From positions 124,001-188,000 of the forward strand of contig JAHLKD010000094.1 in the NCBI GenBank assembly GCA_025526935.1: 64,000 nt of DNA, in the 5' to 3' direction. Origin of the DNA: Cladochytrium replicatum (lineage: Eukaryota; Chytridiomycota; Chytridiomycetes; Cladochytriales; Cladochytriaceae). This document shows positions 43,899-47,215 of this stretch, piece by piece; within the stretch, counting starts at the first letter, position 1; each line of letters starts with the position of its first letter. Both the position numbers and the translations under genes were made by a program. A model generated the notes under the pieces. It was not told the origin of the DNA and ran no database searches. It saw only the letters and a list, made by a program, of their open reading frames with translations.

Positions 43899-45794
43899 AT
43901 GTCTGAGAACCTGCAATTCAAACCAGCTGAAGTCGTCATCTCCGCTGCCGGAAACGATCCCATGAACGTCGATGAGAAGGGAAAATCGACCGAGCGAACC
44001 AGCTCATCGCTGGGAGGTCCCGCTCCTGCTCCGGCTAGGGATTATTGGGGCTGGAATTTCACCTCTCCAGAGTCTCGTAAGAAGAAAGGTGGCCGTCGTC
44101 GCCACCGTCGCTCGCCCTCGGTATCATCTTCCTCGTCCTCGTCTTCTTCCTCCTCGTCGTCATCCTCCTCGTCTTCCTCATCTTCGTCATCGTCGTCCTC
44201 TGACTCCGATTCGGACAAGAAAGTCCGCCGCAACCGCTCCGCCTCCCCCCACCGTCGCAAGGGCAAACACGGTCGTCGCGGACACGGTCACAGGCAAGAT
44301 TCCTACAGCGACCCCCACGGCCGCTTCCGTCTCCTCCGTGTCGTGGGCAAGATTGATCACGTCTACACCCGCCGCATCTCCAAGATTCACGGAAAGTACT
44401 CCCGCCACGCACAGAAACGTGCTGAAAAGTTCTCGAGGAAGCAACATGCGTACGCTGAGAAAATGTCGAAACTACACCACGAGCAGTCGAGTCTGGGCGG
44501 TCAGTCGGTTGAGCGGGCTGACGAGATCCGCGCGAGAATCGATTCGCTTCGCGAGGCGATGGCGGACAATCAGGCAGAGTTTCAGAGAGGAAATGCGGCC
44601 GAGTTGGAGAGGGTGCAACGACGCACGGAGAGAGTGAGGAGCAAGTGGACCTACAAGCGGGAGAAGATTGGCAGAAAGTTCTTCGGTCATCATGGACACC
44701 ACGGCCCAGCACCGCCAGTTCCCCCCACTCCAATGGCACCCCCAGTTCCGCCTGCAGTCCCCGGTCCACTGCCCCCCACGCCGCCCGTTCCGCCCACGCC
44801 ACCCAGCGTTGGCTTTGGAGGATCTTTCGGACCACGCGGCTTTGGAGGTCATCGCGCCGGTAGAGGCGGTTTCGGACGTGGCGGCTTCTTTGGTGGATCC
44901 TTCCCGAACCCTAACTTTGGACCTAGCGGACCCCTAGGGCCTGGTGGACCCCTGGGGCCTGGTGGACCCCTAGGACCTGGTGGACCATTCGGACCGGAGG
45001 GACCGTTGGGACCTCGCGGACCGTTTGGTCCCGATGGACCCTTCGGCGGTCGCGGGGGTCGGGGCGGTCGCCACGGATCCTGGCACCACCACCACCACCA
45101 CCACCACCCCCATCGCGCCCAAACGATCGACCAGGAACGTATAGAGTCCATCATTCGTGACGTGCAGGCCCAAGTCGGCACCAACATCGTCGACGTCCGT
45201 CGCATCGTCGACGAAGCCCAGCGAGAACTCCGAGGCCACTTCTCCCGCGCCGGTGCCGAGGCGTCCCGCTCGGGCGTGAACGCTGTGGAAACGCTCGTGG
45301 ACAGAGTGCTTACGACCGTCTCTTCCATTCTCGACAGCCTCTCCTCCTCGTCGTCCAGCGGCGATGTAGCTGCAAAGAAAGCTGCAGAGGCGGCGGCGGA
45401 AACTGCGGCGCGAACGGCGGCGATCACTGCTGCGAGTGCCGCAGCGGAAAGTGCGGCTGAACACGCAGCGAGGGAAGCGGCTGAAACTGCGGCGAGGAAC
45501 GCGGCGTTGGCGGCCGGCGCGAGTGCGGAACGCGCAGCTGAAGCAGCGCAGGCGGCGGGACAGGCGGCGGCACAGGCAGCCGCAGAAGCAGCTGCGTCGG
45601 GCTTCGCATACTCGGCCGATGCGAACCACGGACCCCCGCTACCTCCGTACATGGAGTACGAGTACGACGATCAGAACGCGTATGTGGACGTGGCGAGTTA
45701 CGTCGAGACAGGGGAGATGCCTCCTATGCCCCCCATCCCGCCTATCCCTCCCATGCCGGAGGTACCTGATGTTCCCAGCGTGCCCAAGCAGTGA
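43899..45794 (+). CDS. multi-segment low-complexity protein with WG-x-x-FTSP motif, collagen-like and Ala-rich parts
   Basis: Not recognised. One 631-aa exon from ATG 43899, preceded by a TATA box. Segments in order: acidic N-terminus; an Ala/Pro run and motif DYWGWNFTSPESRKKKG; an Arg patch; an unbroken run of about 30 Ser; a basic helical region of about 140 residues; a Pro-rich part; a Gly/Phe-rich part; about 13 Gly-Pro-x triplets (GPLGPG units); nine His; a helical region; about 80 residues of Ala-rich heptads (AAEAAAETAARTAA); and a Pro/Met tail. It has no signal peptide or membrane helix. Long tracts and helices suggest a structural or scaffold protein; the function is unknown. Confidence 0.75.
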   Translation: MSENLQFKPAEVVISAAGNDPMNVDEKGKSTERTSSSLGGPAPAPARDYWGWNFTSPESRKKKGGRRRHRRSPSVSSSSSSSSSSSSSSSSSSSSSSSSSSDSDSDKKVRRNRSASPHRRKGKHGRRGHGHRQDSYSDPHGRFRLLRVVGKIDHVYTRRISKIHGKYSRHAQKRAEKFSRKQHAYAEKMSKLHHEQSSLGGQSVERADEIRARIDSLREAMADNQAEFQRGNAAELERVQRRTERVRSKWTYKREKIGRKFFGHHGHHGPAPPVPPTPMAPPVPPAVPGPLPPTPPVPPTPPSVGFGGSFGPRGFGGHRAGRGGFGRGGFFGGSFPNPNFGPSGPLGPGGPLGPGGPLGPGGPFGPEGPLGPRGPFGPDGPFGGRGGRGGRHGSWHHHHHHHHPHRAQTIDQERIESIIRDVQAQVGTNIVDVRRIVDEAQRELRGHFSRAGAEASRSGVNAVETLVDRVLTTVSSILDSLSSSSSSGDVAAKKAAEAAAETAARTAAITAASAAAESAAEHAAREAAETAARNAALAAGASAERAAEAAQAAGQAAAQAAAEAAASGFAYSADANHGPPLPPYMEYEYDDQNAYVDVASYVETGEMPPMPPIPPIPPMPEVPDVPSVPKQ

Positions 45795-45959
45795 TGGATT
45801 GAAACGTTGAGCTTTTTGATTTTGAAACAGTGATGACAGTGTTGGTTAGCATTTTATTTGTATCTGTGACCCTATGTATAATTTTTTTGAATGGAAAATG
45901 AGATGTTTGTAAGAATGGCCAATAAAAAATTTGGATTCTAGTCCACCTGAAACAACAAT

Positions 45960-46068
45960 CCTAAAACCACCAGCGCATGCCATTGTGAGAGCCTAAAACC
46001 ACCAGCGGATGCCATTGTGAGAGTCTAATCCATCATCCTAAACCACCAGCGGACGCCATTGTGAGAGT
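45960..46068. repeat. three direct repeats of about 31 bp
   Basis: Units at 45960..45991, 45992..46023 and 46038..46068 share CCTAAAACCACCAGCG followed by ATGCCATTGTGAGAG, with one or two substitutions each. They follow the 3' end of the low-complexity gene. Confidence 0.88.
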
Positions 46069-46463
46069 ATTTTAACTTGGTCATGGTGCTCGTCACTTCC
46101 GTGTGTGCAATTCCGCCGGACTGCCACAGAATCCACCTCAGACTTCTCCAAGAACTGACCTTGACGCTTAAAAAGAAGGTATGGTTCAAGACGTTCTTCA
46201 TGATGCTCGTGCCTTGAAAATGCAACCCGTTTTGAAAAGAATACATGCTTAATATGGGTCTATTCATGAGAACCTGAATTCATGGCAAGACTTGAAAGCA
46301 ATCCATACTTCACGCTCTTTGATTCCGAGACTTCAAGAGAGGAATGTCGTATTTTTATTTTACATTTCTAGGGTGCACCAAAAATTTCCATTCAGACACC
46401 CGGCCTCCATTGTTCTCTGCAACGCCTGTTCTCCTCCAGTTGGAGAGGCGCTGCTACCTTTAA

Positions 46464-47215
46464 ATGCTCATCCACTCCTTCCGAATCATCATCATCCCGA
46501 TCAAGACTGAAAATCAGCAATTTACAACTGAACCCATAGTCGACCCCCTCGCCGAAAACAACGGAAAGCAGGATAAACAGGTTCGGGGTTGGGGAATCAC
46601 TTCACCCGACTTTCGGCAGAAGATATCCAAAGCAGGAAATGGGAGCGATCTTCGCGAGTCCACGGACGCTCGAGAGAAAGAGTTTTGGGGAATCGGGTTC
46701 ACTAACAAAGACGAAGGAGTTGCTTCGACTACTTGAACCCCACCTGGCGACGAGAAAGGAACTTCTAAGGAAGAAGACGGAGGTGTAGTTGGCGCGGGCC
46801 CTCCGGCGCGGGAGAAGGAGTTTTGGGGAATCGGATTTACATCCCCCGACTTTCGACACAAGAAATGCAAAAAGAAGTAGCCGCATCTTCAGACGAGAAA
46901 CGAACCGCCGAGGAAGTTGTTGAGGGAGCGGCAGCAGCTCCTAAGAAAGAGGTCTGGGGATGGGGATTCACATCGCCAGACTTTCGTCACAAGAAAGGCA
47001 AAGACGAAGATGTGGTCACCACCGATGTGGAGGCAAGCTCTACAATGTAAAACATCCGCCAGCACGTGAGGAGTAGGCGGGTCTGCTCCTGCCGCTCCAG
47101 CAAAAGAGTTCTGGGGGTGGGGAATTACTTCGCCCGATCGCCGCGAAAAGAAACCCGAACAAGACAAGGATGCCGCAAAATCTGCATTCTCGGTTGATTA
47201 TCGGTTACTTCTGTG
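46464..47215 (+). pseudogene. degenerate tandem array of the WG-x-x-FTSP motif
   Basis: Five copies on the plus strand: 46581..46622 (GWGITSPDFRQK), 46672..46722 (EFWGIGFTNKDE), 46812..46865 (EFWGIGFTSPDFRHKK), 46943..46999 (EVWGWGFTSPDFRHKK) and 47100..47153 (EFWGWGITSPDRREKK). Copies 3-5 follow Ala/Pro-rich or acidic linkers, as the motif does in the 43899 protein. Copies 1-3 share a frame, interrupted by TGA at 46734. Copy 4 is in another frame, and copy 5 returns to the first. A 51-nt phase-0 intron could remove the first stop, but I found none joining copies 3, 4 and 5. It is either a decayed paralogue of the 43899 gene or an intron-rich gene with unusual sites. Confidence 0.6.

What the first reader, a model, noticed from the sequence alone, without database searches (positions are those of the whole stretch)
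43899..47215. A repeated W-G-x-x-[FI]-T-S-P motif family at two neighbouring loci
Six copies of one short motif occur within 3.3 kb. Consensus: Ala/Pro- or charge-rich lead, then [KR][ED][FYV]WG[WI][GN][FI]TSP[DE]xRxKK. One copy is in the intact 631-aa low-complexity protein; five form a spaced array downstream. It is W/G-rich, has a core TSP (a potential phospho-site) and ends in a basic patch, as a docking peptide would. I know of no named domain with this pattern. Conservation of W, G, T, S, P and R across copies in different frames shows the array was once coding and was built by repeated duplication.
Basis: partly seen in the sequence, partly recalled or inferred. Interest (0 to 1): 0.75.

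Follow-up and report, generated by a model that had tools for sequence, protein, structure and literature searches.

The report
Decayed repeat copy beside intact gene
Next to an intact gene of unknown function lies a broken sister copy in which one short tryptophan-glycine peptide was repeated five times; the peptide was kept by selection while it was coding, but no convincing relative turned up outside this genome.

Summary
Six related W-G-x-x-[FI]-T copies lie on the + strand: one at the N-terminus of an intact 631-aa ORF (43899-45794) and five at 46575-47150. Two array copies are damaged: copy 2 has R for the first W; copy 3 has lost the TSP part. Between array copies 2, 4, 5 and 6 third-position changes dominate (pairwise differences 23/6/48 by codon position), so the array was coding. 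It now has AAG where the gene has ATG, frame breaks, and stops between copies. No GT-AG intron joins copies 4 and 5, and no GTRNGT donor occurs in 46401-47250. I read it as a decayed, single-locus sister of the gene's N-terminal module, expanded in tandem. The gene has an intact homeologue on contig C111 (81% protein identity, dN 0.13, dS 0.82) with the same motif; the array was not found there. A whole-genome motif search found no further convincing copy, and three protein searches found no homologue beyond matches I read as low-complexity. Most likely role: a linear docking motif in a largely low-complexity protein. An Argonaute-hook (WG/GW) reading is possible but weak. Interest is modest.

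The parts
43853..43858 (+). TATAAA 46 nt before the ATG of the intact gene
   Evidence: aligned with CATAAAAC upstream of the C111 homeologue
43899..45794 (+). Intact single-ORF gene, 631 aa, largely low-complexity, no cysteine; N-terminus carries the motif, then R/S-rich, charged, P-rich, G/P-rich, His8, Ala-rich and PPIP parts
   Evidence: homeologue on C111 81% identical, dN 0.126, dS 0.823
44037..44084 (+). Motif copy 1, RDYWGWNFTSPESRKK
45921..45926 (+). AATAAA downstream of the intact gene
46459..46464 (+). TTTAAA, 44 nt before the lost start; possible remnant of the gene's TATA box (weak; the alignment does not pair the two)
46503..46574 (+). Leader of the decayed sister, related to the gene's N-terminus; AAG where the gene has ATG
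   Evidence: Alignment; identities; codon
46575..46622 (+). Motif copy 2, KQVRGWGITSPDFRQK, first W replaced by R
46677..46703 (+). Motif copy 3, KEFWGIGFT, TSP part lost (net 24-nt gap against copy 5 in one alignment; placed otherwise against copy 4)
46734..46736 (+). TGA in the shared frame of copies 3 and 4
46815..46862 (+). Motif copy 4, KEFWGIGFTSPDFRHK
46863..46880 (+). Stretch in which the frame must break between copies 4 and 5 (A5 run at 46869-46873; ends in TAG of copy 4's frame)
   Evidence: no enumerated intron bridges it
46946..46993 (+). Motif copy 5, KEVWGWGFTSPDFRHK, in a different frame from copies 2, 3, 4 and 6
47048..47069 (+). Stops between copies 5 and 6: TAA in copy 5's frame, TGA in copy 6's frame
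47103..47150 (+). Motif copy 6, KEFWGWGITSPDRREK
47282..47287 (+). AATAAA after the array (one of 14 on this strand of the window, so weak)

Best explanation
The array (about 46459-47287) is a decayed sister gene of the N-terminal module of the neighbouring 631-aa gene. Shown: the leader and the motif resemble the gene's N-terminus; array copies 2, 4, 5 and 6 differ mainly at third codon positions; the frame is now broken in several places and no enumerated intron of normal shape repairs it; the locus was found once in the genome and was not found at the homeologous position on C111. Inferred: a 5' piece of the gene was duplicated, probably before the C94 and C111 copies separated; its unit was repeated in tandem (successive W codons 102, 138, 131 and 157 nt apart); it worked as a small multi-copy motif protein for most of its history; it then decayed on C94 and was lost on C111. 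Inferred: the motif WGW-G-[FI]-TSP-[DE]-x-R-x-KK acts as a short docking peptide in a disordered protein. The tryptophans are the contact; S-P-x-x-R is a possible site of a proline-directed kinase that switches the contact; the basic end favours a nuclear or RNA-bound place. The five-fold copy would have bound several partner molecules or bound one more tightly.
For: Six-frame positions; direct-repeat families; leader alignment, with array against C94 94/163, array against C111 100/165 and C94 against C111 135/163 identical columns; pS 0.57-0.83 against pN 0.10-0.21 between array copies 2, 4, 5 and 6; 12 of 21 variable columns at third positions, permutation p 0.0026; 0 frame-joining GT-AG introns between copies 4 and 5, none with a good donor among the 5 (copies 3-4) and 8 (copies 5-6) found, and no GTRNGT in 46401-47250; single locus in this genome; homeologue open with the motif, array not found there; whole-gene dN/dS about 0.15; no Pfam family over its cut-off.
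Against: No partner, expression or localisation data. Between C94 and C111 the block with the motif (residues 41-80, dN 0.09) is about as conserved as the other blocks (0.07-0.17); only the first 40 residues are less so (0.28). The codon counts rest on 16 codons chosen because they are conserved, with copy 3 left out. A decayed sequence drifts faster, so its position outside the C94/C111 pair may be exaggerated and a younger origin is not excluded. The reverse direction (the gene gained its N-terminus from an older array) is not excluded either. The TATA-like and AATAAA marks are short and could be chance.
Confidence: 0.6

Rival explanations
1. The motif is an Argonaute hook: WG/GW tryptophans in a disordered protein insert into the tryptophan pockets of a PIWI domain, and the five-fold array was a multivalent Argonaute platform.
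For: Every copy keeps at least one W next to G. The genome encodes Argonautes (17 Piwi matches at seven places on six contigs, a lower bound). The one on C14 matches PDB chains named argonaute-1 to -4 best. Of the four pocket residues mutated in C. elegans ALG-1 (PMC5147811, passages), the equivalents of P, K and E are kept in 4 of the 5 Argonaute loci compared.
Against: Known hooks keep little beyond W and G (recalled), whereas here TSPxxR and a basic end are kept too. The intact gene has only one WGW site in 631 aa. The pocket F is A or S in 5 of 5 loci, and the locus on C59 also lacks the P, K and E. The residue transfer between ALG-1 and human AGO2 by a constant offset of 143 is mine.
Confidence: 0.1
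2. The array is still a live gene whose copies are joined by splicing or whose breaks are assembly errors.
For: Strong codon-level constraint between copies. One frame break lies by an A5 run, a place prone to read errors.
Against: Several lesions of different kinds (no ATG at the expected place, stops, two frame breaks, lost TSP part in copy 3, lost W in copy 2) within about 0.7 kb, against an open 1.9-kb neighbour. No enumerated intron bridges copies 4 and 5.
Confidence: 0.1
3. The array is older: the 631-aa gene acquired its N-terminal module from it.
For: The array leader falls outside the C94/C111 gene pair; the C111 motif WGWGFTSP is nearer the array form than the C94 one.
Against: An N-terminal leader next to copy 2 fits a copy of the gene's 5' end just as well; no outgroup was found.
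Confidence: 0.15
4. The motif is a neutral low-complexity by-product without binding function.
For: No convincing homologue in the collections searched; the host protein is made largely of low-complexity tracts.
Against: Synonymous excess between array copies and between homeologues.
Confidence: 0.13

Closest known systems
WG/GW Argonaute-hook proteins (Tas3, Pol V subunit, GW182, KTF1, viral P1)
   Same: Tryptophan next to glycine, repeated, in a low-complexity setting; P1's WG/GW neighbourhood is described as rich in Ala, Ser, Glu, Asn and Asp in PMC2904775 (passages)
   Different: A fixed long consensus with TSPxxR and basic residues; only one site in the intact gene; binding untested
LIR/AIM autophagy motif (pattern recalled)
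   Same: FWGI after an acidic residue in copies 3 and 4
   Different: Core [WFY]xx[LIV] absent from 5 of the 7 copies (six in the window plus C111)
Proline-directed kinase (CDK/MAPK) sites (patterns recalled)
   Same: S-P-x-x-R in the 6 of 7 copies that keep TSP
   Different: The canonical S/T-P-x-K/R is met only in copy 6
Tandem-repeat pseudogenes derived from a neighbouring gene
   Same: Adjacent, same strand, related to the gene's 5' end, stops and frame breaks, not found at the homeologous place
   Different: Clear codon constraint remains in the repeat unit, so decay looks recent relative to the duplications

Membership tests
Pseudogene of a neighbouring gene | Sequence relation to a functional gene | tested here: met
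   Leader and motif align
Pseudogene of a neighbouring gene | Reading frame disabled and not explained by introns | tested here: met
   enumeration limited to GT-AG introns of 30-200 nt lying between the motif cores
Pseudogene of a neighbouring gene | No protein product | not testable with these tools
   No RNA or protein data
WG/GW Argonaute hook | W adjacent to G in low-complexity context | tested here: met
WG/GW Argonaute hook | Several spaced W sites in the functional protein | tested here: not met
   The intact gene has one WGW site (W50, W52); W250 and W395 have no adjacent G. The array had several but is broken.
WG/GW Argonaute hook | Argonaute with tryptophan pockets in the same organism | tested here: inconclusive
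   P, K and E equivalents kept in 4 of 5 loci compared, F replaced in 5 of 5
WG/GW Argonaute hook | Direct binding to Argonaute through W | not testable with these tools
   Needs a binding assay
LIR/AIM | [WFY]xx[LIV] core in every copy (recalled pattern) | tested here: not met
   By eye on the sequences: copies 3 and 4 only, of 7
Any Pfam family | Score over the curated cut-off | tested here: not met
   Sub-threshold matches only, best OmpH 15.6 bits against a cut-off of 32.4 (the gene and two array ORFs scanned)
Secreted repeat-peptide precursor | Signal peptide | tested here: inconclusive
   MSENLQFKPAEVVIS has no evident hydrophobic leader, judged by eye only; no predictor was run

The most novel reading that the evidence does not exclude
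An orphan, lineage-restricted tryptophan docking motif of an Argonaute-hook type, with a fixed consensus and a built-in phospho-switch, that was expanded into a five-copy platform in one of two diverged subgenomes of one eukaryote, and that is being lost there.
Probability: 0.07. Interest if true: 0.55.

Novelty: new member of a known kind. Interest (0 to 1): 0.27.

Why it matters
It is a clear small case of a short linear motif being copied out of a low-complexity protein, multiplied under selection and then lost. If the partner were Argonaute it would be a lineage-specific hook with an unusually fixed consensus.

Tried and rejected
Homologues. The 631-aa protein whole: 2 hits at E <= 0.001 among 7993 scored candidates. 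P0001 (E 4.9e-18, 56% identity over 8% of the query, precomputed Pfam PF15496) carries similar Gly-Pro-Leu/Phe repeats; P0002 (E 4.1e-4, 16% covered) carries collagen Pfam PF01391. I read both as low complexity from their sequences; I did not see the alignments. Residues 128-272: 329 candidates, none at E <= 10. The array: 1055 candidates, none at E <= 10. One search scored only the candidates sharing most words, and each search sees only proteins of 0.55 to 1.75 times the query length, so relatives could be missed.

Prokaryote and virus scans. The motif DNA pattern hit 4 places in genome contigs. On translation two are followed at once by a stop, one has stops some 25-35 residues upstream in an arginine-rich frame, and the archaeal one (L030) is a single copy in an open stretch. 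My own arithmetic expects about one chance match at even base composition in 257 Gb, so 4 is somewhat more than that; I read them as chance because none is repeated or set in the wider consensus. Viral contigs: 0 pattern matches; 3 loci found by protein (of 179 stretches) match residues 341-393 only, the Gly/Pro repeat.

PDB. 76 sequences at E <= 1, best E 0.001; the 60 shown start mostly in the His run, others in collagen-like and R/S-rich tracts; rejected.

Papers. None of the three exact motif strings occurs in the held library; chytrid, tryptophan and 'repeat motif' together gave 0. Listings were seen; only passages of PMC5147811 and PMC2904775 were read.

Considered and rejected: LIR/AIM and AP2-type WxxF (patterns recalled), secreted peptide precursor (by eye), spliced live gene.

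Full report
Observation. The region was read directly. In six frames the motif family occurs at six places in the window, all on the + strand: once in the N-terminus of an intact 631-aa ORF (43899-45794) and five times at 46575-47150. The strict form WGxx[FI]TSP occurs 4 times, against none in each of 50 shuffles of two-base blocks; a looser form, [WR]Gxx[FI]T, occurs 11 times against a mean of 3.46 and a maximum of 8. Two array copies depart from the consensus: copy 2 has R for the first W, and copy 3 reads TNKDEG where the others have TSP. One alignment of copy 3 with copy 5 gives a net 24-nt gap there; the alignment with copy 4 places its gaps elsewhere. Copies 2, 3, 4 and 6 are in one frame and only copy 5 is shifted, so 'different frames' is only partly right.

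Coding past. Among array copies 2, 4, 5 and 6 (16 codons around the motif; copy 3 left out because it has lost the TSP part) pS is 0.57-0.83 and pN 0.10-0.21. Pairwise differences by codon position are 23, 6 and 48, and 12 of 21 variable columns are third positions, with a permutation p of 0.0026 that treats columns as independent. If all positions drifted equally after the break, the six second-position differences would bound the drifting share at about a quarter (18 of 77). By this rough inference the array was coding for most of its history.

Broken now. Where the intact gene has ATG, the array leader has AAG at 46503-46505. A TGA at 46734-46736 separates copies 3 and 4 in their common frame. 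The frame changes between copies 4 and 5, near an A5 run at 46869-46873, and again between copies 5 and 6, where TAA (47048) and TGA (47067) close the two frames. I listed GT-AG introns of 30-200 nt lying between the motif cores that would join neighbouring copies in frame without a stop: 5 between copies 3 and 4, none between 4 and 5, and 8 between 5 and 6. All 13 have donors that match only one of four consensus positions after GT and no CTRAY branch-point match, and no GTRNGT occurs in 46401-47250. The neighbouring 1.9-kb gene is open, so general assembly error is a poor explanation.

Relation to the gene. The leader TENQQFTTEPIV resembles SENLQFKPAEVV of the gene. In the three-way DNA alignment the array is identical to C94 at 94 of 163 columns and to C111 at 100 of 165, while C94 and C111 agree at 135 of 163. 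The simplest reading is that the array branched off before the C94 and C111 genes separated. A decaying sequence drifts faster, so this is not certain. TTTAAA at 46459 lies 44 nt before the lost start, as TATAAA lies 46 nt before the gene's ATG, though the alignment does not pair the two. An AATAAA follows at 47282, one of 14 on this strand. These marks are weak.

Rest of the genome. The gene has one other copy, on contig C111, open, with 81% protein identity, dN 0.126 and dS 0.823, carrying the motif as WGWGFTSPESRKKKGG. A motif search of the whole genome with up to two mismatches gave 7 places: five window copies (1, 2, 4, 5, 6), the C111 copy, and one two-mismatch match on C148; the backward control gave 1 match on each strand. 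The 20 kb of C111 that I read is colinear with the window from about 30 to 57 kb. The distance from the end of the gene match to the next matched stretch is 426 nt there and 1980 nt here (sequence), and the array has no match there. If the array predates the split, its absence on C111 is a loss.

Outside the genome. Three protein searches gave nothing beyond two matches that I read as low complexity. No Pfam model reached its cut-off. Contig scans gave only chance-like or repeat-tract matches. The motif strings were not found in the held papers. The motif is an orphan as far as these collections and length limits reach; no genomes of near eukaryotic relatives were at hand.

How it most likely works. 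The intact protein is largely low-complexity and has no cysteine. The simplest reading is a linear docking peptide in a disordered chain: tryptophans as contact, S-P-x-x-R as a possible kinase switch, a basic end leading into an R/S-rich tract. This is inference; no disorder or structure prediction was run. Between C94 and C111 the block with the motif is about as conserved as the other blocks (dN 0.09 against 0.07-0.17) and more than the first 40 residues (0.28), so the homeologue pair alone does not single it out; its repeated use in the array does.

Argonaute hook considered. Each copy keeps a W next to a G. The genome has Argonaute genes (17 Piwi matches). One on C14 matches PDB chains named argonaute-1 to -4 best. 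K803 and E838, and P733 and F802, were taken as the two tryptophan pockets of ALG-1 (PMC5147811, passages). With a constant offset of 143 they equal K660, E695, P590 and F659 of human AGO2 (my transfer, AGO2 numbers partly recalled). In the five Argonaute loci compared (C14, C106, C41, C80, C59) the P, K and E equivalents are kept in four and lost in C59, and the F is A or S in all five. The intact gene has only one WGW site. The hook is therefore possible but not supported enough to file the protein there.

Verdict. A real, formerly selected motif, in one open gene pair and one dead tandem copy, known from one genome only. Modest interest. On checking, the confidence of the best explanation was set to 0.60 instead of 0.62 because faster drift of a decayed copy weakens the dating of the duplication.

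Noticed in passing
window 30233-57068 and 7158-9235 against contig C111; also L003 (C71) against C8 and L006 (C69) against C31: Much of the sampled genome exists twice: colinear pieces of 68-90% DNA identity with C111, 79% over 7158-9235, 83% over 3.1 kb, and 81-87% over two parts of a 1.45-kb query. One Argonaute exon stretch on C59 had no second copy. A hybrid, an old genome duplication or a mixed assembly would fit.
   Followed up: partly
window 45960-46067: Three copies of a 32-nt repeat (84-100% alike) just after the intact gene; no other place in the genome at E <= 0.01.
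   Followed up: partly
window about 35.7-42.9 kb: About 7 kb present here has no match at the colinear place on C111, where the flanking matches lie about 0.6 kb apart.
   Followed up: no
L036 and L039: Argonaute loci on C106 and C14 are 98.6% identical in a 142-aa PIWI stretch, far closer than the homeologous pairs sampled, and the C14 one scores much better against PDB argonaute-1 to -4 chains than against QDE-2 or KpAGO.
   Followed up: no
window 17641-22374: Neighbouring minus-strand ORFs with similar glycosidase-like sequence (by eye).
   Followed up: no
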